This document shows positions 43,955 through 58,623 of a stretch of DNA of 64,000 nucleotides, one piece after another (position 1 is the first letter of the stretch; each line of letters opens with the position of its first letter). Under the pieces are notes generated by a model. The model worked only from the letters and a program-made list of their open reading frames with translations. It had not been told where the DNA came from and did no database searches. Source of the stretch: Frankiales bacterium (GTDB lineage: Bacteria; Actinomycetota; Actinomycetes; S36-B12; CAIYMF01); NCBI GenBank assembly GCA_016125335.1, contig WGLY01000025.1, forward strand, positions 1-64,000, written 5' to 3'. A program made the translations under genes and the position numbers.

Positions 43955-44230
43955 CTAGAGGCCGTCGGGGTTGCGCACCTCGTCGACGGCGACGGGCTCG
44001 TCGGCCACCGGGCGCCGGGTGACGACCGTGTCGGCCACGGAGTGGCGCGGCTCGACGACCACCTCACGGCGCCGCGAGACGAGGATGAGCGACCAGATCA
44101 GCCCGAGGACGCCCGCGCCCATCAGGATCCAGCCGACCGTGTGGATGTCCACGCCGGCGACCGTGGCGTCGACGGCGAACGCGAGGATCGCGCCCGCGGC
44201 GAGGAGCAGGATGCTGAAGCCGATACCCAT
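43955..44230 (-). CDS. DUF6458 family small membrane protein
   Basis: A 91-residue protein with two membrane helices (about 4-22 and 31-50) and a basic/acidic C-terminal tail. The GIGFSILLLAAGAILAFAV and WILMGAGVLGLIWSLILV segments are typical of actinobacterial DUF6458 proteins. CAGGAGG precedes the ATG. It opens the block of small stress-type genes. No stress-type promoter could be found directly upstream. Confidence 0.8.
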   Translation of the reverse strand: MGIGFSILLLAAGAILAFAVDATVAGVDIHTVGWILMGAGVLGLIWSLILVSRRREVVVEPRHSVADTVVTRRPVADEPVAVDEVRNPDGL

Positions 44231-44415
44231 GGTGTACCTCCTGTGCGGTTCTCACTCGGGGTCGGGGCCGCTCGGCACGATCGGCGGTCCCGTGTCGGGT
44301 GGTGGCGTCTGTGCGGTCTGCCCGAGGCCGGGCCCGGGCTCGACGACGCCGGGCCGCGGGCCGGGGCGGACCGGTAGGGGAAGCACCGGCCGGCGGATCC
44401 GAACCTTGACGCGTC

Positions 44416-44865
44416 TCACGGCGGCCCGCCGTCGTCGTCGGTGCTCCCGGCGGCGCGGGTCGCGACGTCGGGGTCGCGGGCCCCGAGCCCGAGCGGGCGC
44501 GCGTCCTCGGCCAGGAGCCCCTCGGCGTCGTCGACGGAGTCCGCGTAGAGCAGGAGCCGGTCGATCTGGGTGACCGACAGCACCCTGCGCACGGCGCCGC
44601 GGGCGCCGGCCAGGACGAGCCGGCCGCCCTCGGCGTCGTGCCGCCGCGCGGCCTGGAGCAGCCGCGAGAGCGTCACGCTGTCGACGAAACGCGCCGCGGC
44701 GAGATCGACGACGACGTCGCCCGCCGGGTCGACCGCGCGCAGGGCCACGTCGGTCATGTCCACGTTGGCGATGTCGAGATCGCCCTCCAGGTGCACCCGG
44801 GGGGCGCGGCCGGTCGGCCGGTCGACGAACGACCGGCCGACCGGATGGTCCGAGCTGCGGGCCAT
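44416..44865 (-). CDS. STAS-domain anti-sigma-factor antagonist
   Basis: A 149-residue protein with one STAS domain: VHLEGDLDIANVDMTDVAL, then VVVDLAAARFVDSVTLSRLLQAARRH, where Ser63 is in the place of the phosphorylated serine of SpoIIAA/RsbV proteins, and RRVLSVTQIDRLLLYADSVDDA at the end of the domain. A disordered tail follows. It would compete with a sigma factor for binding to an RsbW-like kinase. The start is inside or directly after the CsbD stop (TAGTGATG), so both are transcribed from the promoter at 45075-45099. Confidence 0.85.
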   Translation of the reverse strand: MARSSDHPVGRSFVDRPTGRAPRVHLEGDLDIANVDMTDVALRAVDPAGDVVVDLAAARFVDSVTLSRLLQAARRHDAEGGRLVLAGARGAVRRVLSVTQIDRLLLYADSVDDAEGLLAEDARPLGLGARDPDVATRAAGSTDDDGGPP

Positions 44866-44867
44866 CA

Positions 44868-45041
44868 CTACTCGCTCACGGCGTCCTTGAGCTTCTCGCC
44901 GCTCTGCTTGAGATCGGCCTTGGCCTGGTCGAGCTTGCCCTCGGCGCGCATCGAGTCGTCGCCGGTGACCTTCCCGACCGTCTCCTTCGTCGCGCCCGTG
45001 GCCTTCTCGGTGGCGTTCTTGAGCTTGTCCTCGGTGCTCAT
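44868..45041 (-). CDS. CsbD-like stress protein
   Basis: A 57-residue, highly charged helical protein of the CsbD/YjbJ family, general stress markers of unknown biochemical function. It shows the family repeats of Lys/Glu-rich helices with A-T-G-x-x-K-E-x-x-G-K-V-T-G-D and A-E-G-K-L-D-Q-A-K-A-D. GAGAGGAG precedes the ATG. A SigB/SigF-type promoter (GTTT-N15-GGGTAG) lies 35-60 bp upstream, as with csbD in other Gram-positive bacteria. Confidence 0.9.
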   Translation of the reverse strand: MSTEDKLKNATEKATGATKETVGKVTGDDSMRAEGKLDQAKADLKQSGEKLKDAVSE

Positions 45042-45074
45042 GAGTGCTCCTCTCGTCTCGGGTGCGGGCGTTGG

Positions 45075-45099
45075 CTACCCGCGGTCGAACTCGCTAAAC
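45075..45099 (-). promoter_or_regulatory. SigB/SigF-type promoter of the csbD-STAS operon
   Basis: Minus strand GTTT (45096-45099), 15 bp, GGGTAG (45075-45080). The -35 overlaps the stop codon of the upstream Pro-rich gene. Confidence 0.75.
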
Positions 45100-45390
45100 C
45101 GGTTGGGGCACACCGGGTTCGGGCTCCTCCGGGGGTGTCGGCGACGGGTGGAACGGCGGCCCGACGGGGCCCGGCGGCACCTCACCCGGGATGTCCGGCT
45201 CGGTGGGGACGTCCGGGATGTCCGGACCGGGCGTCGCCGGACCGGGGACGCCGGGCACGCTCGGGCGCTCGGGCTCGAGCGGACCTGCGGCCGCGCGCCG
45301 GAGAGCGGACGTGGCGCCCGTCCGCGCCGGAGGCACCCGGGTGCGGCGCTCGTACGCGTGCTCGACCTTGCTGACGTGCATGGCGTGCAT
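45094..45390 (-). CDS. Small proline-rich hypothetical protein
   Basis: A 98-residue protein with a His/Met-rich start (MHAMHVSKVEHAYERRTR) and a Pro/Gly/Glu-rich C-terminal half (repeats of PGP, PD-P, P-EP). GGAGG 5 nt before the ATG supports translation. The ATGCACGCC unit is duplicated at the start (MHA-MHV). No family recognised; no signal peptide. It lies between a glycosyltransferase operon and csbD on the same strand. Confidence 0.6.
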   Translation of the reverse strand: MHAMHVSKVEHAYERRTRVPPARTGATSALRRAAAGPLEPERPSVPGVPGPATPGPDIPDVPTEPDIPGEVPPGPVGPPFHPSPTPPEEPEPGVPQPV

Positions 45391-45430
45391 GGCGTGCCTC
45401 CGTCCTGTCGTGTGTCGCGGGTGCGGCTCG

Positions 45431-46507
45431 TCAGGCGATGCGGGCCACCGCCTCCTCCGCCCGGGCCGGTGGTGCCTCGTCGTCCGACTCGTCGGCCTCC
45501 TCCGGCCCGTCGTCCGCATCGCTCCCCTGCCCACCACGGGCGCTGTCGAGGCACCGCGAGTACGCGCTGGCCGTCTCGACGGCCACGCGCTCCCACGAGC
45601 ACCGGCCCAGGGCGCGGTCCGAGCCCGCCAGCCCGAACGCCTCGACCGCGAAGTCGTCCGCGACGAGGTCGCGCAGGGCGTGCACCACCGCGGCGGTGTC
45701 GTGCTCCCGGACGTGCAGCCCCGTGACGCCGTGCACCACGAGGTCGCGCTGCGCCTCCACCGGCGTGGCCACCACGGCGACCCCGCACGCCATCGCCTCG
45801 GCCACGAACTCCGGCCGCCCCGGGGCGGGGTCGAGCGCGAGCGCGGCGTGCGCGGACCTGATCCACCAGGCCTTCTCGCGCGCGTCGTGCGGCCAGGCGA
45901 CCACCACGCGGTCCCCCGCGCCCGCGGCCCTGGCCGCGGTGCGGAGATGCTCGGCGGGCTCGGCGAGAGCGCGCATGGCGTCGTGGCGCGCGAGCACGAC
46001 CAGCTCGACCGACTCGTCGGCCGCCACCGCCTCGACGGCGCAGGCGAGCGCGGCCGGGTCGGCCGCGAGCTCGGCCACCAGCCGATGGCGGTGCGTGCGG
46101 TTGGCCATGGCACCGCGCCGCGTGAAGGTCTCGGTGTCGACGCCGACGGGCAGCACGGCGGCCCGGGCCTGCGGCACGCCGGCCCGCACGAGCCGGTCGC
46201 TCAGCGCACTGCTGCGCAGCAGCACCGCCGCCGCGCGGCGCACGGCGTCGACGGCGGACGCGAGGTCGTCCGCGCTGCCCTCGCGCAGCGAGACGACGAC
46301 GGCCGTGCCGGGGGCGGCCCGGGACAGGACCTCCTCGGCCGCACGCCGGCCGAAGGCATGCACGACGTCCGCCCCGTCGAGCGACGGCCCGGACTGAAGC
46401 ACCACGGGGTGGCCGAGCGCGCGCAGGGCGCCGCCCAGCAGGTCCAGGCGCCACGGGGGCGGCGGGTCCCGCGGGTCGACGACGAGGGCGATGCTCGGCG
46501 ACGTCAC
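45431..46507 (-). CDS. GT4-like glycosyltransferase
   Basis: A 358-residue protein with a weak N-terminal Rossmann half (IALVVDPRDPPPPWRLDLLGGALRALGH) and a clear C-terminal GT-B nucleotide-sugar half: ALDPAPGRPEFVAEAMACGVAVVATPVEAQRDLVVHGVTGLHV, where E-F-V-A-E-A-M-A-C-G is the GT4 motif (given here across residues about 245-290). A long acidic tail (DSARGGQGSDADDGPEEADESDD) is unusual. GTG start overlaps the stop of the ATPase gene (GTGA). Acceptor unknown. Confidence 0.8.
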   Translation of the reverse strand: MTSPSIALVVDPRDPPPPWRLDLLGGALRALGHPVVLQSGPSLDGADVVHAFGRRAAEEVLSRAAPGTAVVVSLREGSADDLASAVDAVRRAAAVLLRSSALSDRLVRAGVPQARAAVLPVGVDTETFTRRGAMANRTHRHRLVAELAADPAALACAVEAVAADESVELVVLARHDAMRALAEPAEHLRTAARAAGAGDRVVVAWPHDAREKAWWIRSAHAALALDPAPGRPEFVAEAMACGVAVVATPVEAQRDLVVHGVTGLHVREHDTAAVVHALRDLVADDFAVEAFGLAGSDRALGRCSWERVAVETASAYSRCLDSARGGQGSDADDGPEEADESDDEAPPARAEEAVARIA

Positions 46508-46983
46508 GCGCCGTCCTCCGGGGCCGTCGCGAACCGGGCCCACACGGTCTTGCCCGCTGCCTCGCCCGGCTCCGGCCGCCAGCCCCACGAGTCGGCGAGG
46601 CGGTTCACGATCTCCAGCCCCCGGCCCCGGTCGGCGTGGGCCGCGAGCGGGTGCGGAGCACCCATGGACGCACGCCGGTCCCTCACCTCGACGAGCACGT
46701 GGTCCGGGGAGCCGGACACGTGCAGCCGCTCGACGCCGCCGCCGTGCTCGACGCCGTTGGACACGAGCTCGCCGGCGACGACGACCACGTCGTCGGGCCG
46801 CTCGAGACCTCCGAACGCCACCAGCACCTCGCACAGCTCGGACCGCCACGTGGACGGCCGGTCGAAGGAGGCGGGCGCGTCGTACTCGAACGAGACGACG
46901 GAGCCCGCGCGCAGCGTCTGCCGGTCCATGCGGCTGCCGGTACCCGTCGGCCGTGGGGCGAAACGCGTCGACGGGGCGGTCAT
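46504..46983 (-). CDS. RsbW-like serine kinase/anti-sigma ATPase
   Basis: A 159-residue HATPase_c_2 protein. N box VVAGELVSNGVEHG, G1-like VEVRDRRAS, and DRGRGLEIVNRLADSWG identify the GHKL anti-sigma-type ATPase fold used by RsbW/SpoIIAB. The longest form starts at 46983 (ATGA overlap with the upstream glycosyltransferase). A second in-frame ATG at 46929 lies just after an internal SigB-type promoter, and could start a 141-residue form. Together with the STAS protein at 44416 and the SpoIIE phosphatase at 56371 it could form a partner-switching system. Confidence 0.88.
   Translation of the reverse strand: MTAPSTRFAPRPTGTGSRMDRQTLRAGSVVSFEYDAPASFDRPSTWRSELCEVLVAFGGLERPDDVVVVAGELVSNGVEHGGGVERLHVSGSPDHVLVEVRDRRASMGAPHPLAAHADRGRGLEIVNRLADSWGWRPEPGEAAGKTVWARFATAPEDGA
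46940..46964 (-). promoter_or_regulatory. Internal SigB/SigF-type promoter for the RsbW-like gene
   Basis: Minus strand GTTT (46961-46964), 15 bp, GGGTAC (46940-46945). It lies inside the 5' end of the ATPase frame; transcription would begin just before the ATG at 46929. Confidence 0.65.
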
Positions 46984-48119
46984 CGGCCGCCCCGCACGGC
47001 GACGGCGACCGGCGCGCCGGCCGCCGCATAGGACTCCAGCGTGCCGTCCGCGATGCGCGCCTGGTCGAACAGCTCGCGCGCCCGCTTGCGCGAGGCACGC
47101 GACATGGAGGAGCGCACCTCCGGCGCGTCGTCGAGGATCCGCACTGCGGACGCGATGCGCCGCGGGTCGCCGGGCGGGATGCACAGGCCGGTGACGCCGT
47201 GCTCGACCAGCTCGTCGGTGCCCCCGAGGCTCGTGACGAGCGCCGGCACGCCGCACGCCATCGCGGCCGAGACGACCCGCAGCGAGGGGTCGCGCCGCGG
47301 CGTGTAGGCGACCAGGTCGGCCCGGCACAGCGCGTCGTGCACCCGGGAGGGCGTCGCGTCCGGGAGGACGCTGATCCGGTCGGCGACGTGGAACTGGGCC
47401 CCGAGCACGCGCAGGTCCGCGAGCGCGGCGCTGGTGCCGCCGCGCGAGCGCTGCCACGCCACCGTGAGGTGCGCCGCGGGGAGGTTGGGCAGGGCGCGGA
47501 CGAGGTCCGCGAGCCCCTCGCCCGTGTCGTCGGCGACGGTCGCGATCCGCGACGCGCGGTTCGCGATCGAGGGCTCGAGGTAGGAGCCGCGCACGTCGCC
47601 GACGATGCTCAGCGGGACGACGTCGCACTTGTCCCGGGGCACGCCGTCGCGTGCGAGCACGTCGACCTCCCACGACGTCGAGACGATGATGCGGTCCGCG
47701 CCGGCGGGACAGAACCGCTCGGTCCCCTCGATCTGCGCCGGCGCGCCGTCACGACGGGTCCACACCCACGGCACGCGCAGGCTGCGGGCGACCCGCTCGG
47801 CCACGCGTCCGGCGGCGGCGCCGAACGCGTGGATGAGATCGGGGCGGCGCGCGCGCAACGAGGTGCACAGCCCGTCGAGCCGCCCGTTCGGCAGGCTCTC
47901 GCGGTGCCCCACCCGCAGCACGTCCAGGCGGGCGCTCGACTCGTGCTCGTACGACAGCGTCATCCCGGTGGGTTCGCACATCGTCACGATGGACACGTCG
48001 TACCCGCGCGCCACGAGCTCCCCAGCCAGGCCGGTCACCGGCGTGCCGAGGCTTTCTCCGGCGGGCACAGCCCACTCAGCTGTCGCGTCCTCGTCCAAGG
48101 ACACCAAGGCCACGTGCAT
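46980..48119 (-). CDS. GT4-family glycosyltransferase
   Basis: A 379-residue GT-B glycosyltransferase. The N-terminal half has TPVTGLAGELVARGYDVSIVTM and DLIHAFGAAAGRVAERVARSLRVPWVWTRRD; the C-terminal half has the donor-site pattern RRDPSLRVVSAAMACGVPALVTSLGGTDELVEHGVTGLCIPPGDP (about residues 285-330). GAAGGATC precedes the ATG. First gene of a three-gene operon with the ATPase and second glycosyltransferase. A SigB-type promoter lies 127-151 bp upstream, which would make its product (perhaps an osmoprotective or surface glycan) stress-induced. Confidence 0.85.
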   Translation of the reverse strand: MHVALVSLDEDATAEWAVPAGESLGTPVTGLAGELVARGYDVSIVTMCEPTGMTLSYEHESSARLDVLRVGHRESLPNGRLDGLCTSLRARRPDLIHAFGAAAGRVAERVARSLRVPWVWTRRDGAPAQIEGTERFCPAGADRIIVSTSWEVDVLARDGVPRDKCDVVPLSIVGDVRGSYLEPSIANRASRIATVADDTGEGLADLVRALPNLPAAHLTVAWQRSRGGTSAALADLRVLGAQFHVADRISVLPDATPSRVHDALCRADLVAYTPRRDPSLRVVSAAMACGVPALVTSLGGTDELVEHGVTGLCIPPGDPRRIASAVRILDDAPEVRSSMSRASRKRARELFDQARIADGTLESYAAAGAPVAVAVRGGR

Positions 48120-48245
48120 GATCGATCCTTCGTCCGGCGCGCGGCGCGCGCTGCGGGCCGACGACGTCAGGGCGCCGGCGTACTGCTCGTCCCGGGGTCC
48201 GGGCGGGACTCCGCCCGCGGGCAGCGATCACGACAACGCCCCGGC

Positions 48246-48270
48246 GTACCCCTCACCTCGGACCGGAAAC
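48246..48270 (-). promoter_or_regulatory. SigB/SigF-type promoter of the glycosyltransferase-ATPase operon
   Basis: Minus strand GTTT (48267-48270), 15 bp, GGGTAC (48246-48251). It leaves a 5' UTR of about 120 nt. Confidence 0.7.
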
Positions 48271-48351
48271 CGTGCACCGTGTGGCGAATCCCACCGGCCC
48301 GCGTCGGGTGTCCACCATCCGGACCAGGGCTGATGCCGGGCGCCGGGCACC

Positions 48352-48376
48352 GTTTCGCCGATCGGGTCCGGGGAAA
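48352..48376 (+). promoter_or_regulatory. SigB/SigF-like promoter of the 48.45-kb operon
   Basis: GTTT (48352-48355), 15 bp, GGGAAA (48371-48376), on the plus strand, 76 bp before the GTG at 48452 and back to back with the minus-strand promoter. Confidence 0.55.
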
Positions 48377-48451
48377 GGGCCCGATCGACCAGGGCGGCGT
48401 CGACGCCGTCCGCACGTTCGGCCCTGCGCCGACCGGAGGAAGGGGACTCCT

Positions 48452-48748
48452 GTGAAGAAGCTCGTGCTGCTGCTGACCCTCGGCGGAGCCGTCGGCTACG
48501 TGCTGGGAGCGCGCGCCGGACGGCCGGCCTACGACAAGATCCTCGACACCTACCACCGCACGGCGGACGCCGTGGGCCTCGACCAGGCGAGCCAGTCGGT
48601 CCGGTCCGCGAGCGCCGACCTGCGCGACGCCGTGGCCGAGCGGGCGGGCGCCACCGTGCGCGAGGCCGGCGACACCGCGGTCTCGGGGCTGCACGACGCG
48701 GCGGACCAGGTGCGCGAGGACCCCGGGGTGCACCGGATGCCCTCGTGA
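48452..48748 (+). CDS. YtxH-like small membrane-anchored protein
   Basis: A 98-residue protein with one short N-terminal helix (KKLVLLLTLGGAVGYVLGARAGRPAYDKI) and an amphipathic helical tail (QSVRSASADLRDAVAERAG...). The GYVLGARAGR block after the helix is typical of YtxH-type stress-associated membrane proteins of actinobacteria. GGAGGAAGGGGA precedes the GTG. First gene of an operon with two disordered acidic proteins. Confidence 0.8.
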   Translation: MKKLVLLLTLGGAVGYVLGARAGRPAYDKILDTYHRTADAVGLDQASQSVRSASADLRDAVAERAGATVREAGDTAVSGLHDAADQVREDPGVHRMPS

Positions 48749-48990
48749 CCCACACCCCATCGTCCACCGGCCGCGGGGGCGCCGCGCACGAACCGTTGCG
48801 CCCCCGCGGCCCGGACGACCCGCGCGACGAGCGCCTGCGGCGCGAGCGCGAGCACCGCGACCGGGTCGCCGACGACGGCCACGAGCCGGTCGCGGGCGAC
48901 GAGCGCGAGTCCGGCTACACGACGGAGCGGGAGCAGGGCGCCGCGCAGCCGGGCCCGGCACGACCGGACAGCGAGGAGGACGGCGCATGA
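48745..48990 (+). CDS. Highly charged, probably disordered small protein
   Basis: An 81-residue protein very rich in Arg, Glu, Asp, Gly and Pro, without hydrophobic core (RDERLRREREHRDRVADDGH). GTG start overlaps the previous stop (GTGA) and the stop overlaps the next gene (ATGA), which supports real translation. No family recognised. Such charged proteins are common in stress operons. Confidence 0.65.
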   Translation: MTHTPSSTGRGGAAHEPLRPRGPDDPRDERLRREREHRDRVADDGHEPVAGDERESGYTTEREQGAAQPGPARPDSEEDGA

Positions 48991-49319
48991 GCCAGGACGA
49001 CGTACGCGGCGACCTCGCCGACCAGGCGGACGCGTCGATCGCGTCGTTCGAGCAGGGGGCCATCGAGGCCGCGCTCGCGGGACGCCGGCGCGAGGAGGAC
49101 GACGACGACCTCGCCCGGCCCGACCGCGTGGCCGACGAGCCGGTGCTCGACCTCGGCGACGGGGACGACAGCGACGACCCTGCGCACGCCGGCGGCGACG
49201 ACGTCGCCGTCACGAGCACCGGGTCCCCGCAGGAGCCCGACGACGTCGCGGTCCGCGACGGCGAGGAGCTCGCCCGCACCCTGGCCGAGCGCACCGACGA
49301 GCAGGCGGGCGACGCCTGA
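48987..49319 (+). CDS. Acidic, probably disordered small protein
   Basis: A 110-residue protein dominated by Asp, Glu and Ala (DEPVLDLGDGDDSDDPAHAGGDD). It has a short potentially helical front (ADQADASIASFEQGAIEAALAGRRR) and no recognised domain. Coupled to the upstream gene through an ATGA overlap. It is the last gene of the three-gene operon. Confidence 0.65.
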   Translation: MSQDDVRGDLADQADASIASFEQGAIEAALAGRRREEDDDDLARPDRVADEPVLDLGDGDDSDDPAHAGGDDVAVTSTGSPQEPDDVAVRDGEELARTLAERTDEQAGDA

Positions 49320-49384
49320 CGGCTGCCGTCCCGTCCCCTGACGGCGACACCTGAGAGCAGCGCGGAACCCTTGCCAGCGTTGAT

Positions 49385-49409
49385 GTTTCGAGGCCTCGTG
49401 ATCGGGAAC
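49385..49409 (+). promoter_or_regulatory. SigB/SigF-like promoter of the DUF6131-like gene
   Basis: GTTT (49385-49388), 15 bp, GGGAAC (49404-49409), 45 bp before the ATG at 49454. Confidence 0.55.
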
Positions 49410-49453
49410 CCGCAACCAGCGGCGACGCGGGTCGCCGGGAGAAGGAGCGAGTC

Positions 49454-49609
49454 ATGATCGTGCTCGGAGTGATCCTGCTCATCATCGGGCTCATCGCGAA
49501 GATCGCCTGGCTGTGGACCATCGGCATCATCCTGCTCGTCGTGGGGGCCGTCCTGGCGCTGGTCGGCACGACCGGCCGGACCATCGGCGGCCGTACCCAC
49601 TGGTACTGA
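49454..49609 (+). CDS. DUF6131-like small membrane protein
   Basis: A 51-residue hydrophobic protein with two close helices (IVLGVILLIIGLIAKIAWLW and IIGIILLVVGAVLALVG-like) and a GGRTHWY end. Such short proteins are conserved in actinobacteria and often associated with stress. AAGGAGCGAGTC precedes the ATG. It has its own stress-type promoter. Confidence 0.8.
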   Translation: MIVLGVILLIIGLIAKIAWLWTIGIILLVVGAVLALVGTTGRTIGGRTHWY

Positions 49610-49633
49610 TCGGTCCGCCGCACCCCGCGGTCT

Positions 49634-49674
49634 GCCGGAGCGCGTCGCACGCCCCACGTGCGGCGCGCTCCGGC
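49634..49674. terminator. Bidirectional terminator
   Basis: An 18-bp stem with one G-T wobble and a 5-nt loop, between the convergent DUF6131-like and PAP2 genes; the longest hairpin of the window. Confidence 0.9.
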
Positions 49675-49738
49675 GCGTCCGGCGACGTGCGCAGCACGGG
49701 AGCCGACGGGTCCGGTCGTCGCAGGGGGTCGGTGGCGG

Positions 49739-50611
49739 TCAGCCGTCGTGCGCTCCCGGCGAGTCGCGGTCGTCGCCGCGCTCCCTCCACCAGCTCGCCA
49801 CCGCCACGGCGACGGCGCACCACGCCGTCGCGAACAGCCATCCCCCGACCACGTCGCTGGGCCAGTGGACGCCGAGCCACACCCGCGACCAGCCCACCGC
49901 GAGCGCGTACGCCGCGGCGCCGGCCCACAGCAGGCGGCGCCGCCGGGTGCCGGTGACGCGGGCCGAGAGGGCCCACGCCGCGCACAGCGCGACGAGCGTC
50001 GCCGTCGTGGTGTGGCCGGAGGGGAACGACGGACCGCCGGCGGCGCCGGCCCAGTCCACCTCGGGCGGTCGCGCCCGGCCGGTGGCGTGGTTGACCAGGA
50101 GGCCGACGTACACGCCGGCGCTGGCGACCGCGGCCAGCAGCAGGCCGGCGCCGAGCCTGGCCCGCACGGACCGGCGGCCGGGCAGCGCGAGCGCCCCCAC
50201 GACGCCCACTGCCGGGAGGGTCCAGGTGGTGACGCCGCCGATCGTCACGGCGTTCGCCACGGCGACGTCGACCGACCCCCGCACGCCCACGACCCACGCG
50301 TGCACGTCGTCGTCCCAGCCGGTGAGCACTCCCCCGTGCCCCACCACGGCGAGGGTGAGGACGCCGAGGGCGCAGGCGCACGCGACCCCGACCCCGAGCG
50401 AGACGCGCACCGTGGGCGCGCGGCGCGAGACGACCTGCTCGAGGTCGAGCACCACGCCGGAGCCCTCACGGTGGCCGGGCGCCGTCGGCGAGACGGCTTC
50501 CTCGACCGCGCCCTCCACGGTGGTCGCGAGGTCGTCCGCCCCGCCGGCGCCGGCTGCGTCGTCGGGCTCGCGTTCCGCGGGTGAGGCCCGGCGGTGGCGC
50601 TGCGGTCTCAC
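49739..50611 (-). CDS. PAP2-family membrane phosphatase
   Basis: A 290-residue membrane phosphatase that may act on polyprenyl or phosphatidyl phosphates. Catalytic motifs: NHATGRARP (K/N-x6-RP variant), PSFPSGHTTT, and GWSRVWLGVHWPSDVVGG (S-R-x5-H-x3-D). About five helices; the first 75 residues are soluble and acidic. The GTG overlaps the stop of the other PAP2 gene (GTGA), so it is the last gene of the four-gene operon starting at 52399. Confidence 0.88.
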   Translation of the reverse strand: MRPQRHRRASPAEREPDDAAGAGGADDLATTVEGAVEEAVSPTAPGHREGSGVVLDLEQVVSRRAPTVRVSLGVGVACACALGVLTLAVVGHGGVLTGWDDDVHAWVVGVRGSVDVAVANAVTIGGVTTWTLPAVGVVGALALPGRRSVRARLGAGLLLAAVASAGVYVGLLVNHATGRARPPEVDWAGAAGGPSFPSGHTTTATLVALCAAWALSARVTGTRRRRLLWAGAAAYALAVGWSRVWLGVHWPSDVVGGWLFATAWCAVAVAVASWWRERGDDRDSPGAHDG

Positions 50612-51420
50612 GCGGCGGGCACCTCGCGCACGTCGACGTCCTCCTCAGGTCCGGGCGGGCCGGCCTCGGCCAGCCTGCCCGCGGGCATCAGGGTGGTGAC
50701 CACGATCGCGAGCCAGATCCCTCCGCCGATCGCGCCCATCACCACGTCCGAGGGATGGTGCATCCCGCGGTAGACCCGCGACAGCGCGACGTAGACCGGG
50801 ATCGCGGCGCACAACGTCACGATGATCGCCGCGAGCGTGCGCCGACGCACGTTGCGCCACACGATGACCGCGATGCACCCGTAGATCGCGACGGCGGCGG
50901 CCGTGTGCCCGGAGGGGAAGCTGGACGTCGGCGGGGCGGCGTCGAGGTGGCGCACGTCGGGCCGGTCGCGCTGCACGAGGAACGTCACGGCGAGGAAGAC
51001 GAGCAGCTCGCCGACGATCGCCGCGACCAGCACCCACGACTCGGTCCACCGGCCCAGCCACACGCGCAGCAGCAGCCCGACCACGACGAGCACGCTGATG
51101 ACCGTCACGGTGTCGGCGACCCGGCTGCCGAGCCAGCTCACCTGGTCGAGCGTGGGAGTCGACATCGACACCGCGCCCTCGTTGACCGAGTCCTCCCAGC
51201 GCGTGAACGCGGACGGGGTCAGGAGGTCCACGATCAGCCAGCCGACGAGGCACAGGCCCAGCGTGAGCGCGACCGCGCCCCCGAGGATGCGTCCGGCCGC
51301 TGCCCAGGGGCCGCGCCGCGCGACCTCGTCCGACGGCGACGGCGGGGTGGCGCTGTGCCGGCCGACGACCTCGCGGTTCCCGACGTCCGAGCCCGCCGAC
51401 CCGGCGGGACGCGCCGTCAT
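50608..51420 (-). CDS. PAP2-family membrane phosphatase
   Basis: A 270-residue membrane phosphatase. Motifs: LVQRDRPDVRHL (first motif), SSFPSGHTAAA and ALSRVYRGMHHPSDVVMG, with all catalytic His and Arg. Six predicted helices. Sequence differs from its neighbour enough that a recent duplication is unlikely. ATG overlaps the DUF1206 stop (ATGA). Having two such phosphatases under one stress promoter suggests recycling of a polyprenyl-phosphate carrier or lipid remodelling during stress. Confidence 0.88.
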   Translation of the reverse strand: MTARPAGSAGSDVGNREVVGRHSATPPSPSDEVARRGPWAAAGRILGGAVALTLGLCLVGWLIVDLLTPSAFTRWEDSVNEGAVSMSTPTLDQVSWLGSRVADTVTVISVLVVVGLLLRVWLGRWTESWVLVAAIVGELLVFLAVTFLVQRDRPDVRHLDAAPPTSSFPSGHTAAAVAIYGCIAVIVWRNVRRRTLAAIIVTLCAAIPVYVALSRVYRGMHHPSDVVMGAIGGGIWLAIVVTTLMPAGRLAEAGPPGPEEDVDVREVPAA

Positions 51421-52244
51421 CGCACGTCCTCGTCGCTGACGCGGCGCCACCGTGCCTCCGCGAGCGCGTACACGCCGAAGAGCATGAGCCCCGCGCCGAG
51501 CGCGAGCACGAGCCACGTGCCGTAGGGCTGGTCGAGCAAGGTGCGGGTGGCCGTGTCGATGCCGCCGGCCTTGGCCGGGTTGGTGTCGAGCGCCGCCTGC
51601 ACGACGAGCCCACCCGTCACGGCGAAGACCAGGCCGCGGGCGATGGTCCCCACGCGGCCGAGCAGCACGACGGCGCCGCGGGCGCGGGGTGGCAGGTAGC
51701 CGAAGTAGCGCAGGAACTTCTTGCTCCACCCCTCGATCACCATGCTGACCCCGACCGCGACGACGGCCACGCCGGCTCCTCCCACGAGCCAGCGCCCCCC
51801 GGGCTGGCTCATGACGTGGGCGGCGATGCGCCCCTGCTGGCCGGCCTGCGTCTGGCGGGCGCCGTGCAGCACCGACACCGCGGTGAACGCCAGCACGCCG
51901 TAGGCGATCGCGCGCACGAGGGACTTGAGCCGGGCGCCCCAGGTGTCGCGCTCGCCGCTCGGACCGGCGACGGCCTCCACGAGCCGCCACACGGCGTACG
52001 CCGCGAGCCCGACGGCCAGCACGATCACCAGCACGGTGCCGAACGGCTGCGAGATCAGCGTGGTGATCACGCCGCGCTGGTCTACCGGGTGGTGGTCGCC
52101 CGTGGCCAGCAGGATCGCCAGCCAGCCCATGACCAGGTACACGACCCCCCTCGCCGTCAGGCCGAGGCGGGCCAGCCATCCCATGGGACGGCTGTTGGCC
52201 GCGGCGTCCGCGCCCTGCGACACCTGCGAGGCGACGTCGGTCAT
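51417..52244 (-). CDS. DUF1206 family membrane protein
   Basis: A 275-residue protein with six to seven helices arranged as three repeats of the DUF1206 unit (WLARLGLTARGVVYLVMGWLA at the first, SLVRAIAYGVLAFTAVS at the second, GTIARGLVFAVTGGLVVQAAL at the third). The family is conserved, function unknown. ATG overlaps the stop of the 52-residue gene (ATGA). Part of the stress operon. Confidence 0.9.
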   Translation of the reverse strand: MTDVASQVSQGADAAANSRPMGWLARLGLTARGVVYLVMGWLAILLATGDHHPVDQRGVITTLISQPFGTVLVIVLAVGLAAYAVWRLVEAVAGPSGERDTWGARLKSLVRAIAYGVLAFTAVSVLHGARQTQAGQQGRIAAHVMSQPGGRWLVGGAGVAVVAVGVSMVIEGWSKKFLRYFGYLPPRARGAVVLLGRVGTIARGLVFAVTGGLVVQAALDTNPAKAGGIDTATRTLLDQPYGTWLVLALGAGLMLFGVYALAEARWRRVSDEDVR

Positions 52245-52399
52245 GACCGCACCCCCGTCCGGCCCGAGCGCACCACGGCAGCGACGATCCCGGCCACCAG
52301 CAGCACGAGCGCCGCCACGAAGAGCCACCAGGCGGCTGTCCCCAGCCCGATCACCGCCAGCACGACAGCAGCCAGCACGAGCATCAACCACACAGCCAT
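52241..52399 (-). CDS. Small hydrophobic membrane protein
   Basis: A 52-residue protein with two helices (VWLMLVLAAVVLAVIGLG and WLFVAALVLLVAGIVAAVV) and a basic end (RSGRTGVRS), resembling the DUF6131-like gene at 49454. GAGGAG precedes the ATG. First gene of the operon that continues with DUF1206 and two PAP2 phosphatases. Confidence 0.78.
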   Translation of the reverse strand: MAVWLMLVLAAVVLAVIGLGTAAWWLFVAALVLLVAGIVAAVVRSGRTGVRS

Positions 52400-52460
52400 C
52401 GGACTCTCCTCGGTCGCGTCGGGCGTCGTCGCGACCGCAGCCGCGCCGACCGCGCGCCGT

Positions 52461-52485
52461 CTACCCGCACGAGCCGTGCTCAATC
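52461..52485 (-). promoter_or_regulatory. SigB/SigF-type promoter of the DUF1206-PAP2 operon
   Basis: Minus strand GATT (52482-52485), 15 bp, GGGTAG (52461-52466), about 60 bp before the ATG at 52399. Confidence 0.7.
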
Positions 52486-53361: not shown

Positions 53362-54551
53362 GCACCACGAGTCCCACGAGCGCCCGCCCCGCGACGCCGC
53401 TCGAGGCGCTGGCCGCGGCACGCTCGCTGGTGCCCGCCCTCGCGGAACGTGCGGACGAGCACGACCGCACGGGGCGGTTCCCGGTCGAGGACGTCGCGGA
53501 CCTGCGCGCAGCCGGCCTGCTCGGACTCATGGCCCCGACGCGGCTCGGCGGCGCCGGGGCCGGGTTCGCCGACTACGCCGAGGTGGCCATGGCGCTCGCC
53601 TCGGGGGCGGGCGCGACCGCCCTGGTCTACAACATGCACTGCTCCGTCACCGGAGCGCTCGCGTCGACGCCCGACGACGTGGCACGCGCGATGGGCGTCC
53701 CCGACTCGTACTTCGCCATGCGCGACCGCGTGCTCTCCGCCGCCGTCGGCGGCGCGTTCTTCGGCGTCGCCATGTCCGAGCGCGGTGCGGGCTCGCGGCT
53801 GTCCGCGATCACGACGTCGTACGAGCCGGTCGAGGGCGGCTTCCGCATCCGCGGCTCCAAGACCTTCTGCTCCGGGGCCGGTCACGCGGACGCCTACCTC
53901 GTCGCAGCACGCCGCGGCGAGCTGCTCAGCTACTTCCTCGTGCCTGCCGGTCCCGGCGTGGTCGTCGAGGAGACCTGGGACTCGATGGGCATGCGCGCCA
54001 CGGGATCCCACGACCTGCACCTCGACGTCGTGGTCTCCCCCGACACCCTCGTGGGCGGTGTCGAGGGCATCGCGCTGCTGCTCGCCCAGGTGATGCCGCA
54101 GTGGCTCGTCGCGTCCTACGCCGCGGTGTACGTCGGCGTGGCGCAGTCCGCGATCGACGCCGGCGTCGAGCACGCGCGCACGCGCGGGCTCGAGCGCCTG
54201 CCCGCTGTGCGTGCCCGCCTCGGGCGGGCCGAGGCGCGCGTCGCCGCGGCCAGGCTCGTGGTGCTGGAAGCCGCGCGGCGGGTCGACGAGGCGCCGGGCG
54301 ACCCGGACACCAACCGGTGGGTGTGGCGGGCGAAGCTCACCGCCGGCGAGACAGCCATGGACGTCGCGGCGTCCGTGCTGGAGGCGGCGGGCACCTCGGC
54401 CACGCGGCGCGGCAACCCGCTGGAGCGCATCTTCCGCGACGCGCGCTGCGGCTCGCTCCAGCCGGCCACCAGCGACGTGTGCGCGGACTGGCTCGGCACC
54501 GCGGTGCTCGGCGTCGATCCCGACAACGCGGCGCAGGTGCCGCGATGGTGA
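53358..54551 (+). CDS. Acyl-CoA-dehydrogenase-fold flavoprotein
   Basis: A 397-residue flavoprotein of the acyl-CoA dehydrogenase superfamily: GLLGLMAPTRLGGAGAGF, the FAD-contact block FFGVAMSERGAGSRLSAI, the middle domain FRIRGSKTFCSGAGHADAY and a C-terminal four-helix domain. In the C-terminal segment where dehydrogenases have the catalytic Glu before G-T-S (YEGTS), this protein reads LQPATSD, so the usual base is absent. That is the situation in flavin-dependent monooxygenases of this fold (group D). As partner of a type III PKS it is more likely a ring hydroxylase than a dehydrogenase. ATG coupled to the methyltransferase; stop overlaps the PKS start by 7 nt. Confidence 0.8.
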   Translation: MSTTSPTSARPATPLEALAAARSLVPALAERADEHDRTGRFPVEDVADLRAAGLLGLMAPTRLGGAGAGFADYAEVAMALASGAGATALVYNMHCSVTGALASTPDDVARAMGVPDSYFAMRDRVLSAAVGGAFFGVAMSERGAGSRLSAITTSYEPVEGGFRIRGSKTFCSGAGHADAYLVAARRGELLSYFLVPAGPGVVVEETWDSMGMRATGSHDLHLDVVVSPDTLVGGVEGIALLLAQVMPQWLVASYAAVYVGVAQSAIDAGVEHARTRGLERLPAVRARLGRAEARVAAARLVVLEAARRVDEAPGDPDTNRWVWRAKLTAGETAMDVAASVLEAAGTSATRRGNPLERIFRDARCGSLQPATSDVCADWLGTAVLGVDPDNAAQVPRW

Positions 54552-55615
54552 GCGCCGCGGTCGTGGGCCGCGGGTTCGCCGTGCCGCCGCGGATGGACCA
54601 GCAGCAGCTGTGGGACGGCTTCTTCGAGCAGCACTGGTCCGGCAACCGCGTGGCCCGCGCGGTGTGGGCGTCGTCGGGGGTGCGCACGCGGCACGGCGTC
54701 GTCGACCCGAGGGTGGAGGACGTGAGCGGCTGGTCGACGGCCGCGCGGATGTCCCGCTTCGCCGACGAGGCGCTGCCCCTCGCCAAGGGCGCCGCGTCCG
54801 CGGCGCTCGAGGACAGCGGCACCGACGCGGCCGAGGTGGGCCTGCTCACCGTGGTCTCGTGCACCGGCTACGCGACGCCGGGCATCGACCTCATGCTCGC
54901 GCGCGACCTCGGGCTCGCGGACAGCGTCCAGCGGCTCTTCGTGGGCCACATGGGCTGCTACGCAGCACTCCCCGGGCTCGGCGCCGTCGCGGACTACGCG
55001 GTGGCCCGGGAGCGGCCGGCGCTGATGCTGTGCGTGGAGCTCACGAGCCTGCACGCCCAGCCCGCGGCGCCCACCACGACGGCGCGCCACGCCGACGAGG
55101 ACGAGCTCGAGCAGATGGTCGCGCACGCGCTGTTCGGCGACGCCGCCGCCGCCGTCGTGGTGTCGCCCTCGGGCCCCGGTGTCGAGGTCGTCGACGTCGT
55201 GGCGCTCACCGACCACGCGACCGGCGACCACATGACGTGGGACGTGACCGACCTCGGCTTCCGGATGGGCCTCTCGCCGCGCGTGCCCGACGTCCTCGCG
55301 CTGCACGTGCGCGGCGTGGTCGACGACCTGCTCGGCCGGCACGGCACGAGCATCGACCAGGTCGCCGGCTGGGCGGTGCACCCCGGCGGCCCGCGCATCC
55401 TCGACGTCGTGCAGGACCGGCTCGGGCTGCCTGACGACGCGCTCGCGGAGTCGCGAGAGACGCTGGGCGAGTTCGGCAACTGCTCGAGCGCCACGGTGCT
55501 GCTCGTGCTCGACCGGGTGCTCACCGCACGGCGTCCGGCCTCGGGCTCGCACCTGGTGGTGATGGCGTTCGGCCCCGGTCTCACGCTCTACGCCGCGCTG
55601 CTGCGCGTGCGCTGA
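54545..55615 (+). CDS. Type III polyketide synthase
   Basis: A 356-residue chalcone-synthase-like enzyme that extends an acyl-CoA starter with malonyl-CoA and cyclises the chain. The catalytic triad is complete: Cys138 in FVGHMGCYAALPGL, His279 in WAVHPGGPRILD and Asn312 in FGNCSSATVLL; the C-terminal AFGPGLTLYAALL matches the conserved GFGPG loop with Ala for Gly. Starts inside the preceding gene. Related actinobacterial enzymes make alkylresorcinols, alkylpyrones or tetrahydroxynaphthalene; which of these applies cannot be read from the sequence. Confidence 0.93.
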   Translation: MVSAAVVGRGFAVPPRMDQQQLWDGFFEQHWSGNRVARAVWASSGVRTRHGVVDPRVEDVSGWSTAARMSRFADEALPLAKGAASAALEDSGTDAAEVGLLTVVSCTGYATPGIDLMLARDLGLADSVQRLFVGHMGCYAALPGLGAVADYAVARERPALMLCVELTSLHAQPAAPTTTARHADEDELEQMVAHALFGDAAAAVVVSPSGPGVEVVDVVALTDHATGDHMTWDVTDLGFRMGLSPRVPDVLALHVRGVVDDLLGRHGTSIDQVAGWAVHPGGPRILDVVQDRLGLPDDALAESRETLGEFGNCSSATVLLVLDRVLTARRPASGSHLVVMAFGPGLTLYAALLRVR

Positions 55616-56370: not shown

Positions 56371-58623
56371 GTGGCGACCTCCGAGCAGCTGTCCCTTCCC
56401 CCACGACGCGACATCGCCCCGGCACTGCTCGCGCTCACCTCCCGGCTGGCCGCCGCCGGCGACCCGTCCGAGGTCCTCGACGTCCTCCTCGAGCACTGCC
56501 CGTCGCTGCTCGGGGCCGACCTGGTCAACGTCTCGCTGCTCGACCCCGACGGCGACACCTTGCGGCTGGTGTCCTCGCGCAGCACCTCGCTGGAGGTGGC
56601 CGAGGAGTTCGCCGCGTACCCGCTCGACGCGCCCCTGCCCACCCGCGACGCCATGGCGGGCGAGGGCCGCACGGTGGTGCTGCGCTCCCTCGCCGAGCGC
56701 GACGCGCGCTACCCGGCGCTGGCCGGGGTGGAGGTGGCGCACGAGGCGTTCCTGGTCACACCCCTGCGCACGGCCCGGGTGCGGGTCGGGGCGCTCGGAC
56801 TGGGCTGGCTGTCGTCCGCCGACCTCACCGACGAGGTCGTGGCCGTCAGCGAGTCGGTGGCCGAGCTCGTCGCCTCGGCGCTCGAGCGCGCCCTCGCCGC
56901 CCGCGACGAGATGCGCGCACGCCGGCGCGCGCAGGGGGCGCTGCTGAAGCTCCAGAGCCTCCAGCAGCTCACCAGCGACCTGGCGCACACGACGGACGTC
57001 CGTGAGGCGGGCGACCTCGTGGCCCAGAGCGCCTGCGACGAGCTCGGGGCCGACGCGGCGACGATCCACATGCTCGACGCCTCCGGCACGTGGGCAACGC
57101 AGCTGGCCACCTGCGGGCTGGACTCCGAGGAGGTCACGCGCCGCACCACGTGGCCGGTGACCGACTCGGACGTCGCGCTCGAGCTGCTCGAGACGGGCGA
57201 GCCGGTCGTGGTGCGCTCGCGACGCGAGCGCGACGAGCGCTTCCCCTCGTTCCAGGCCCGCCGCATCACGCAGCAGGCGTGGGTCACGGTGCTCCTCACC
57301 GTGGGCGGCCGGGCGGTGGGGATCGCGGCTTTCGGGTGGGACGAGCCCCACGACGTCGACGACGACGAGCTCGTGCTGCTCCAGGCCCTGGCCGGGCACG
57401 CCGCGGCAGCGATCGACCGCGCCCGGCTGATCGAGGACGAGCAGGCCCAGCGGCACCGGGCCGAGCGCGGGCGCGAGCGGCTCGTGCTGCTGTCCGAGGT
57501 GGGCCGGGTGCTCGACTCCGCGGCGGACGCCGACCGGGCGGTGGCGATGGTGCGCCGAGCAGTGCTGGCCGGCCGGGCCGACTGGTGCCGCTTCGAGGGG
57601 GCTTGCGACGACGCCCCGGTCGAGCCCGGGTCGCCGCTGCACTCCGAGGAGGCGAACGCCGCAGCGCAGACCGCGGCCCACGAGCGGGCCGTCGTCGCGT
57701 TCACGGTCCTCGAGGATGGTCGGCCCAGCCGGGAGGGCCTCGCGGTGCCGGTGCGGTGGTCCGGTCCCCGCCCCCTGGTGATGCTCGTCGCCGTCGAGCC
57801 CGGGCACGAGCTCGCGGAGTCCGACCGTGGCGCCTACGAGGAGGTCTGCCGCCGCCTGGCCGCCCGGCTGGACAACCTCGCCCTCCTCGAGGAGCAGACC
57901 CGGATCGCCGAGCGGCTCCAGGAGTCGCTGCTGCCCGCTCCGTTCCCGGAGGTCCCCTGGCTGACCCTCGGCTCGGCGTACGAGCCCGCGGACACCTCGC
58001 TCGACGTGTGCGGCGACTTCCTCGACGTGTTCGAGGCCGACGACGGCGACCTCGTGCTCGTCATCGGCGACGTCGTCGGCCGAGGCGTGGAGGCGGCCGG
58101 GCTCACCGGGCTCGCCCGGCACACCCTGCGCGCGCTGGCCGGCGACCTGAGCCCGGACCGCGCCCTGCGCCGGCTGAACGGCACGCTGCTCGGCACGGCG
58201 TCGCGGGACGAGGCGCCCTCGCTGCTCACCGCGGCGTGCCTGCGGCTGCGGCGCACGGAGGGGGGCGCACGGCTCACCCTCGCGCTGGGCGGGCACTGCC
58301 AGCCGGTGCTCGTCCAGGACGGACGGGTCTCGCTGTTCGGCGAGCCGGGCACGCTGCTGGGCGCGTTCGACACCGTGTCGCACCCGCTGACCACCGTGGA
58401 CCTGGCGCCGGGGGACGTCGTCGTGCTCTACACCGACGGCGTGATCGAGGCGAAGGGGGCGGAGGTGGCGGACCAGTTCGGCGACGAGCGGCTGATCGAG
58501 CTGCTCGTGGAGCAGACCGACCACGACCCCGCCCACCTCGCGCGCGAGGTGATCGGCACGGTGCGCCGCTTCCGCCGCTCGGCGCCGGACGACATGGCCG
58601 TCCTCGTCGTGCGGATCGACTGA
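56371..58623 (+). CDS. GAF-domain SpoIIE-type (PP2C) serine phosphatase
   Basis: A 750-residue signalling phosphatase. Two to three GAF-type sensor domains (about 20-185, 205-350 and a weaker one 370-510) are linked by charged helices; the C-terminal PP2C/SpoIIE domain (about 520-750) has LQESLLPAPFPEVPWL, DVCGDFLDVF (metal Asp), VIGDVVGRGVEAAGL (metal Asp), FGEPGTLLGAF and YTDGVIEAKG, ending in DDMAVLVVR. The enzyme would dephosphorylate a STAS antagonist and so release a sigma factor. The GTG has a weak AGGGGTG site; its promoter was not identified. The STAS and RsbW-like proteins at 44-47 kb are candidate partners. Confidence 0.92.
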   Translation: MATSEQLSLPPRRDIAPALLALTSRLAAAGDPSEVLDVLLEHCPSLLGADLVNVSLLDPDGDTLRLVSSRSTSLEVAEEFAAYPLDAPLPTRDAMAGEGRTVVLRSLAERDARYPALAGVEVAHEAFLVTPLRTARVRVGALGLGWLSSADLTDEVVAVSESVAELVASALERALAARDEMRARRRAQGALLKLQSLQQLTSDLAHTTDVREAGDLVAQSACDELGADAATIHMLDASGTWATQLATCGLDSEEVTRRTTWPVTDSDVALELLETGEPVVVRSRRERDERFPSFQARRITQQAWVTVLLTVGGRAVGIAAFGWDEPHDVDDDELVLLQALAGHAAAAIDRARLIEDEQAQRHRAERGRERLVLLSEVGRVLDSAADADRAVAMVRRAVLAGRADWCRFEGACDDAPVEPGSPLHSEEANAAAQTAAHERAVVAFTVLEDGRPSREGLAVPVRWSGPRPLVMLVAVEPGHELAESDRGAYEEVCRRLAARLDNLALLEEQTRIAERLQESLLPAPFPEVPWLTLGSAYEPADTSLDVCGDFLDVFEADDGDLVLVIGDVVGRGVEAAGLTGLARHTLRALAGDLSPDRALRRLNGTLLGTASRDEAPSLLTAACLRLRRTEGGARLTLALGGHCQPVLVQDGRVSLFGEPGTLLGAFDTVSHPLTTVDLAPGDVVVLYTDGVIEAKGAEVADQFGDERLIELLVEQTDHDPAHLAREVIGTVRRFRRSAPDDMAVLVVRID

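What the first reader, a model, noticed from the sequence alone, without database searches (positions are those of the whole stretch)
43955..52485. Six promoters with identical SigB/SigF architecture across an 8.5-kb stress block
GTTT or GATT followed by exactly 15 bp and GGGTA or GGGAA occurs before csbD (45075), inside the RsbW-like gene (46940), before the glycosyltransferase operon (48246), before the 48452 operon (48352), before the DUF6131-like gene (49385), and before the DUF1206-PAP2 operon (52461). The genes they drive are typical general-stress functions, so this is an unusually compact sigma-B-type regulon that includes its own STAS and ATPase regulators.
Basis: seen in the sequence. 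Interest (0 to 1): 0.75.

Follow-up and report, generated by a model that had tools for sequence, protein, structure and literature searches.

The report
Conserved sigma-B-type stress-gene island
Six genes or operons packed into one short stretch of an uncultured actinobacterium's genome share the same rare stress-type on-switch, and relatives keep the same switches in front of many of the same genes, so this is a real but broadly familiar kind of stress-response island with an unusual built-in regulator.

Summary
G[TA]TT-N15-GGG[TA]A occurs six times in the window (0.09 expected), all at the stated places, and 13 times in the 3.93-Mb genome against 0 for the reversed pattern. Spacer 15 is the genome-wide peak. 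17 of 19 GTTT-N14-16 sites lie just upstream of a gene start, against 5 of 20 at other spacings. Three relatives carry the motif before orthologous genes; in one, all nine GTTT-N15-GGGTA sites of a 4.2-Mb assembly lie within 15.6 kb. The genome has one SigB/F/G-family sigma gene over cut-off, on another contig beside a weakly matching RsbW-like gene.

Corrections: the 46,941 site lies 11 nt before the ATPase's conserved start, not inside the gene. Seven of 13 strict sites lie elsewhere. The block's STAS and ATPase are accessory partner-switch proteins, not the sigma-adjacent pair. The ATPase keeps an N-box Asn that the sigma-adjacent protein lacks, suggesting a feedback kinase (inferred). M. 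smegmatis has a comparable SigF island with a SigF-driven RsbW3 that did not phosphorylate RsfB. Against: 13 of 17 family genomes show no clear motif excess.

The parts
45076..45099 (-). SigB-type promoter, GTTT-N15-GGGTA, 34 nt before csbD
   Evidence: a GTTT-N15-GGGTA site also precedes csbD in G002, G006 and G008
46941..46964 (-). SigB-type promoter, GTTT-N15-GGGTA, 11 nt before the HATPase ATG
   Evidence: same site 10-11 nt before the ATG in G002, G006, G008
48247..48270 (-). SigB-type promoter, GTTT-N15-GGGTA, 127 nt before the glycosyltransferase operon
   Evidence: G006 has a site before its GTb homologue
48352..48375 (+). SigB-type promoter, GTTT-N15-GGGAA, 76 nt before the 48452 operon, divergent from the previous one
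   Evidence: the divergent pair is also seen in G006
49385..49408 (+). SigB-type promoter, GTTT-N15-GGGAA, 45 nt before the DUF6131 gene
   Evidence: sites before DUF6131 homologues in G006 and, inside the neighbouring called gene, in G008
52462..52485 (-). SigB-type promoter, GATT-N15-GGGTA, 62 nt before the 52241 small gene and the DUF1206-PAP2 operon
   Evidence: GGTT-N15 or GATT-N16 variants in G002, G006 and G009, 3 of 6 relatives with DUF1206
43955..44230 (-). DUF6458 small membrane protein
   Evidence: Pfam PF20059
44252..44419 (-). proline-rich small ORF, not called by my gene caller
   Evidence: no Pfam match
44416..44868 (-). STAS protein (anti-anti-sigma-like), FVDSVTLS conserved
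   Evidence: Pfam STAS_2 and STAS, alignment
44868..45041 (-). CsbD
   Evidence: Pfam PF05532
45431..46507 (-). glycosyltransferase (GTb)
   Evidence: Pfam
46504..46929 (-). RsbW/SpoIIAB-like HATPase (HATP), N-box Asn kept
   Evidence: Pfam HATPase_c_2 on the longer ORF, alignment, model search
46980..48119 (-). glycosyltransferase (GTa)
   Evidence: Pfam
48452..48748 (+). small protein, no family
   Evidence: homologues in G006 and G008
48745..48990 (+). small protein, no family
   Evidence: homologues in G006 and G008
48987..49319 (+). small acidic protein, no family
49454..49609 (+). DUF6131 small membrane protein
   Evidence: Pfam PF19626
49739..50611 (-). PAP2 phosphatase
   Evidence: Pfam
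50608..51420 (-). PAP2 phosphatase
   Evidence: Pfam
51417..52244 (-). DUF1206 membrane protein
   Evidence: Pfam PF06724
52241..52399 (-). small membrane protein, first gene of the operon
   Evidence: no Pfam match (on 52241-52402); homologue in G006
56371..58623 (+). GAF-SpoIIE (RsbU-like) phosphatase near the block, no SigB-type site found
   Evidence: Pfam SpoIIE and GAF; scan

Best explanation
The six motifs are promoters for the genome's SigB/SigF-family sigma factor, which is encoded on another contig next to an RsbW-like gene. They make 43955-52485 a general-stress island: CsbD, small membrane proteins, PAP2 phosphatases, two glycosyltransferases and an accessory partner-switch pair (HATPase and STAS) are switched on together when the sigma factor is released. 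Shown by sequence: motif, spacing, placement, conservation. Inferred: transcription by this sigma factor. Further inferred and less certain (about 0.4): the HATPase is made from a near-leaderless mRNA as part of the response and, with its intact N-box, phosphorylates STAS antagonist(s) so that the sigma-adjacent RsbW, which lacks the N-box Asn, can recapture the sigma factor, that is, a feedback kinase. The confidence given is for the promoter/regulon part.
For: 6 sites against 0.09 expected in the window; 13 against 0 genome-wide. Of 39 GTTT-N8-24-GGGWA sites, 11 have N15, 3 N14, 5 N16, and 20 are spread over the 14 other spacings. 17 of 19 N14-16 sites, but 5 of 20 others, are outside called genes and at most 250 nt upstream of a same-strand start (Fisher p 7e-5). 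GTTT-N15-GGGTA counts in G002 8, G006 12, G008 9, reversed controls 0 in each, placed before csbD and HATP in all three and before other orthologues in part, with differing spacer sequences. One SigBFG gene over cut-off, 307 bits. Published consensus GTTTAA-N12-14-GGG(A/T)A(A/T) for B. subtilis SigB (PMC8346170) and GTTT-N14-19-GGGTA for M. smegmatis SigF (PMC4694148). Model of the HATPase (mean pLDDT 64) matches UsfX, SigF-bound anti-sigma, SpoIIAB and RsbW structures best; N-box Asn in 4 of 4.
Against: No expression data. 13 of 17 family genomes show no clear strict-motif excess (33 sites against 58 reversed; largest single excess G012, 3 against 0), although 10 of these 13 carry a SigBFG gene over cut-off. 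The looser GNTT-N14-16 pattern is not enriched (55 against 85). The whole N8-24 pattern has 18 reversed-control hits against 39. The sigma-adjacent RsbW-like protein matches no Pfam family and NCBIfam RsbW models only far below cut-off (28.1 bits against 145). G009 has HATP next to GTb but no such promoter before HATP. Kinase activity and partners are untested; the near-leaderless reading rests on predicted starts.
Confidence: 0.87

Rival explanations
1. The HATPase is a booster like M. smegmatis RsbW3: induced by the sigma factor, it pairs with the sigma-adjacent RsbW and disables it, giving positive feedback.
For: RsbW3 is SigF-driven (GTTT-N17-GGGTAA), lies near rsfA in a SigF-dependent cluster, and raises SigF output when overexpressed (PMC7693655 passages). 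The island HATPase is likewise SigB-driven and shares an island with a STAS gene.
Against: RsbW3 is reported closer to RsbW1 and did not phosphorylate RsfB, whereas the island HATPase keeps the N-box Asn and had no match to the sigma-adjacent gene at E 1e-3 in a tblastn of L020.
Confidence: 0.2
2. The HATPase-STAS pair is a separate partner switch that gates the neighbouring glycosyltransferases or another output and does not act on SigB; SigB only supplies its transcription.
For: HATPase lies next to GTb in G000, G002, G008 and G009 and between two glycosyltransferases in G000 and G008.
Against: The fold search gives anti-sigma factors first. In three Streptacidiphilus loci (L056-L058) the closest homologues lie with a STAS match within about 2.5 kb of a sigB homologue, which favours a sigma role.
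Confidence: 0.15
3. The motifs are a chance or composition effect picked out after the fact.
Against: The strict pattern is 13 to 0 genome-wide; spacing, placement and conservation tests were made after the pattern was fixed.
Confidence: 0.03
4. The promoters are read by another alternative sigma factor (WhiG/FliA type or ECF) of this genome.
For: The genome has further sigma-70 matches: seven in all at E 0.001 or better with the SigBFG model.
Against: Only one is over the SigBFG cut-off, and the motif equals the SigB/SigF consensus of the papers read. That other sigma classes prefer other sequences is recalled, not tested.
Confidence: 0.06

Closest known systems
Mycobacterium smegmatis SigF regulon cluster MSMEG_1766-1804 with RsbW3 and RsfA (PMC4694148, PMC7693655; passages read)
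   Same: Many neighbouring genes behind GTTT-N15/16-GGGTA-type sites; a sigma-driven RsbW homologue near a STAS antagonist gene; ChaB in that cluster and in the G008 island; hemerythrin in both regulons.
   Different: There sigF and rsbW lie in the cluster; here the sigma gene is on another contig with no G[TA]TT-N13-18-GGG[TA]A site in 18 kb around it. RsbW3 did not phosphorylate RsfB, whereas the island HATPase keeps the N-box. Here HATP adjoins glycosyltransferase genes. In G008 all nine strict sites found are in one locus.
SigB regulons of Bacillus subtilis and Streptomyces coelicolor (PMC8346170; passages read)
   Same: Promoter form: GTTTAA-N12-14-GGG(A/T)A(A/T) equals GTTT-N14-16-GGG(A/T)A.
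   Different: S. coelicolor has nine SigB homologues (abstract start); here one SigBFG gene over cut-off.
RsbW/SpoIIAB/UsfX anti-sigma factors and SpoIIAA/RsfB antagonists
   Same: Fold of the HATPase model and sequence profile of the STAS protein.
   Different: Neither passes an NCBIfam cut-off; the STAS motif is FVDSVTLS, where another STAS of this genome has FLDSTGLS.

Membership tests
SigB/SigF-type regulon | Promoters of the form GTTT-N14-16-GGG(A/T)A before the genes | tested here: met
   (one of the six has GATT)
SigB/SigF-type regulon | A SigB/F/G-family sigma factor in the genome | tested here: met
   C3:105541-106215, 307.2 bits against cut-off 234.35
SigB/SigF-type regulon | Expression depends on that sigma factor | not testable with these tools
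   no transcript or mutant data
M. smegmatis-type SigF island | Many sigma-dependent transcription units clustered, with an RsbW homologue and a STAS gene among them | tested here: met
   six sites in 7.4 kb with HATP and STAS genes; similar in G002, G006, G008
M. smegmatis-type SigF island | rsbW-sigF inside the cluster | tested here: not met
   the sigma gene is on C3, the block on C25; G002, G006 and G008 also have it on other contigs
RsbW/SpoIIAB kinase family (HATP) | GHKL ATPase domain with N-box Asn | tested here: met
   Pfam HATPase_c_2 32.4 bits over 27.4; Asn in 4 of 4
RsbW/SpoIIAB kinase family (HATP) | Passes a curated anti-sigma model cut-off | tested here: not met
   best NCBIfam RsbA_anti_sig 40.5 bits against 210
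RsbW/SpoIIAB kinase family (HATP) | Fold of RsbW/SpoIIAB | tested here: met
   model of mean pLDDT 64; the 12 best PDB matches are UsfX, SigF-anti-sigma, SpoIIAB or RsbW complexes
RsbW/SpoIIAB kinase family (HATP) | Binds a sigma factor or phosphorylates a STAS protein | not testable with these tools
   needs biochemistry
Anti-anti-sigma STAS family | STAS domain with a phosphorylatable Ser | tested here: inconclusive
   Pfam STAS_2 and STAS met; Ser after FVD in 4 of 4; but TIGR00377 49.0 bits against 53.45
RsbW/UsfX (sigma-adjacent gene on C3) | Recognised by Pfam or NCBIfam anti-sigma models | tested here: inconclusive
   no Pfam match; RsbW models at E about 1e-6 but far below cut-off; position beside sigB in G000, G002, G006 and G008

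The most novel reading that the evidence does not exclude
In this lineage the general-stress regulon has partly condensed into a conserved island (all nine strict promoters found in one 4.2-Mb relative lie in 15.6 kb), and within it a kinase-competent RsbW-type protein, made from a near-leaderless SigB mRNA placed inside a glycosyltransferase operon, feeds back on the response or gates envelope glycan synthesis: a partner switch encoded in the output of the response rather than in its input.
Probability: 0.25. Interest if true: 0.65.

Novelty: new variant of a known kind. Interest (0 to 1): 0.5.

Why it matters
It gives a little-studied actinobacterial lineage a concrete, testable general-stress regulon whose promoters can be found by an exact pattern. 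It points to a wiring, a SigB-driven RsbW paralogue with an intact N-box, that differs from the studied M. smegmatis RsbW3, and it ties small families of unknown function (DUF6131, DUF6458, DUF1206 and the 48452 and 48745 families) to the stress response.

Tried and rejected
Looser patterns (GNTT-N14-16-GGGWA) do not separate from the reversed control genome-wide (55 against 85), so the claim rests on the strict form. Presence of a SigBFG gene does not predict a strict-motif excess across 17 family genomes, so I do not use it as support. GTa as an anchor found only two weak homologues among 16 relatives. Sequence search of PDB with the HATP profile was weak (best 3ke6, E 0.0038). No SigB-type site was found for the 56371 phosphatase. 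The order-wide HATP search scored at most 18 first-look candidates per genome, so its absences are not exhaustive. Literature: six searches; from their listings (titles and abstract starts) no paper on this island was recognised; passages were read in three papers only (PMC7693655, PMC4694148, PMC8346170).
Full report
WHAT WAS CHECKED. The pattern G[TA]TT-N15-GGG[TA]A has six matches in the 64-kb window, at the six reported places, against 0.09 expected from dinucleotide shuffles. The whole genome (3,930,387 bases, 41 contigs) has 13 matches and none for the reversed pattern. With one mismatch allowed (GGG kept) and spacers 14-16, the window shows only these six places plus three shifted readings of the same sites.

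SPACING AND PLACEMENT. GTTT-N(8-24)-GGGWA has 39 matches genome-wide, 18 reversed: N14 3, N15 11, N16 5, and 20 over the 14 other spacings. With a simple gene caller of my own, 11 of 11 N15 sites and 17 of 19 N14-16 sites lie outside called genes and at most 250 nt upstream of a same-strand start; at the other spacings 5 of 20 do (Fisher p 7e-5; all 39 sites examined). The two exceptions are C2:179660 and C15:629. The looser GNTT-N14-16-GGGWA is not enriched (55 against 85 reversed).

CORRECTION AT 46,941. In the window and in G002, G006 and G008 the site ends 10-11 nt before an ATG, with no clear Shine-Dalgarno sequence by eye. Another site in this genome (C6:143212, N16) lies 10 nt before a possible GTG start of a second small HATPase. 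HATPase genes in G106, G107 and G024, in two other families of the order, have GTTT-N15-GGGTA 10 nt before a possible start (in G106 and G107 a GTG 4 nt away is also possible). Of 22 HATP matches in 21 genomes, 7 have such a site just before the start.

THE SIGMA FACTOR. The SigBFG model gives seven matches in the genome at E 0.001 or better and one over its cut-off (C3:105541-106215, 307.2 bits). Directly upstream, overlapping by four bases, is a 129-aa RsbW-like gene; it has no Pfam match and matches NCBIfam RsbW models at about 1e-6 but far below cut-off, so its name rests on that weak match and its place. No G[TA]TT-N13-18-GGG[TA]A site lies in the 18 kb fetched around it. The genome has 15 HATPase_c_2 and 8 STAS_2 matches over cut-off.

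CONSERVATION. In G006, csbD, a GTb homologue and the divergent 48452-type gene each have GTTT-N15-GGGTA, and a second contig carries nine more sites, before a DUF6131 gene, a 48745-type gene, a GAF-SpoIIE phosphatase, the HATPase, a gene pair ending in STAS, and others. In G008 the order GTa-HATP-GTb-csbD-STAS-DUF6458 is kept (with two further genes in between) with sites before HATP, csbD and DUF6458; in G002 HATP-GTb-csbD-STAS-DUF6458 with sites before HATP and csbD. GTTT-N15-GGGTA counts are G000 7, G002 8, G006 12, G008 9, reversed controls 0 in each. G008's nine all lie in C333:13699-29339; G006's twelve lie in C30:7164-19831 (nine) and C138:10500-11889 (three). These are draft assemblies (88-95% complete; G008 9% contamination). 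Spacer sequences differ between genomes. Against this, the other 13 of 17 family genomes show no clear excess (33 against 58 in sum; G012 3 against 0), though 10 of them have the sigma gene. DUF1206 is found in 6 of 16 relatives; a GGTT-N15 (G002, G006) or GATT-N16 (G009) variant precedes that gene set in 3 of the 6. A diacylglycerol-kinase-like gene, by eye, lies beside DUF1206 in several relatives; in the window's genome a Pfam DAGK gene is on C22 with its own GTTT-N16-GGGTA.

REST OF THE REGULON. Other N14-16 sites precede a short-chain dehydrogenase, a hemerythrin, a luciferase-like monooxygenase, a TPP enzyme, a molybdopterin oxidoreductase and a DAGK protein; four of the ten proteins scanned had no Pfam family. 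Four of these sites lie within about 7 kb on C4, a second, looser group.

THE PARTNER-SWITCH PAIR. The HATPase is GHKL-type by Pfam. Its model (mean pLDDT 64) matches UsfX, SigF-bound anti-sigma, SpoIIAB and RsbW structures best. The N-box Asn is kept in 4 of 4 orthologues, whereas the sigma-adjacent protein has none at that place in 4 of 4, read by eye. The STAS protein resembles TM1442, SpoIIAA and RsfB and keeps FVDSVTLS in 4 of 4. In three Streptacidiphilus loci of the 36 found, the closest HATP homologue lies with a STAS match within about 2.5 kb of a sigB homologue (L056-L058), which favours a sigma-related role. A GAF-SpoIIE phosphatase lies at 56371-58623 without a SigB-type site. My preferred mechanism is a feedback kinase; an RsbW3-like booster and a switch on the glycosyltransferases remain open.

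COMPARISON. Promoter type and clustering are known from M. smegmatis: a table of SigF-dependent genes lists many units from MSMEG_1766 to MSMEG_1804 with GTTT-N15/16-GGGTA-type sites, among them rsbW3 (MSMEG_1787), chaB and sigF (PMC4694148, passages). RsbW3 is SigF-driven, lies near rsfA, binds RsbW1 and did not phosphorylate RsfB, while RsbW2 did (PMC7693655, passages). Different here: the sigma pair is outside the island, the island's RsbW-type protein has the N-box Asn, it adjoins glycosyltransferases, and in G008 all strict sites found lie in one locus. Hence a new variant of a known kind.

TAXONOMY. The record with G002's contig is titled Candidatus Nanopelagicales bacterium and that of G008 Actinomycetes bacterium. 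An uncultured actinobacterial lineage is inferred.

Noticed in passing
L024 7082-14090 (G000:C4:105081-112089): Second, looser group of SigB-type sites: before a short-chain dehydrogenase (N15), divergent before a hemerythrin (N16) and a 73-aa protein (N14), and before a luciferase-like monooxygenase (N14).
   Followed up: partly
L025 5213-5622 (G000:C6:143212): GTTT-N16-GGGTA 10 nt before a possible GTG start of a second small N-box-bearing HATPase.
   Followed up: partly
window 44252-44419 and 45094-45393 (-): Two proline-rich small ORFs without Pfam match; the csbD promoter overlaps the 3' end of the second. They may not be genes.
   Followed up: no
L102 8280-18824 (G006:C30): The G006 island also holds a GAF-SpoIIE phosphatase with a SigB-type site, a second STAS gene, a protein-kinase-domain gene and a second HATPase: nearly a full partner-switch set.
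   Followed up: partly
L056-L058 (Streptacidiphilus): HATP homologue, a STAS match, a further HATPase and a sigB homologue within about 2.7 kb, with a DUF6458 match nearby in L057 and L058.
   Followed up: no
L034 5617-5683 (G000:C2:179616-179684): Overlapping, nearly palindromic GTTT/GGTT...GGGAA sites on both strands; no called gene start downstream within 250 nt, so probably not promoters of this class.
   Followed up: no
window 54545-55615 (+): By eye a chalcone-synthase-like (type III polyketide synthase) protein; not scanned.
   Followed up: no
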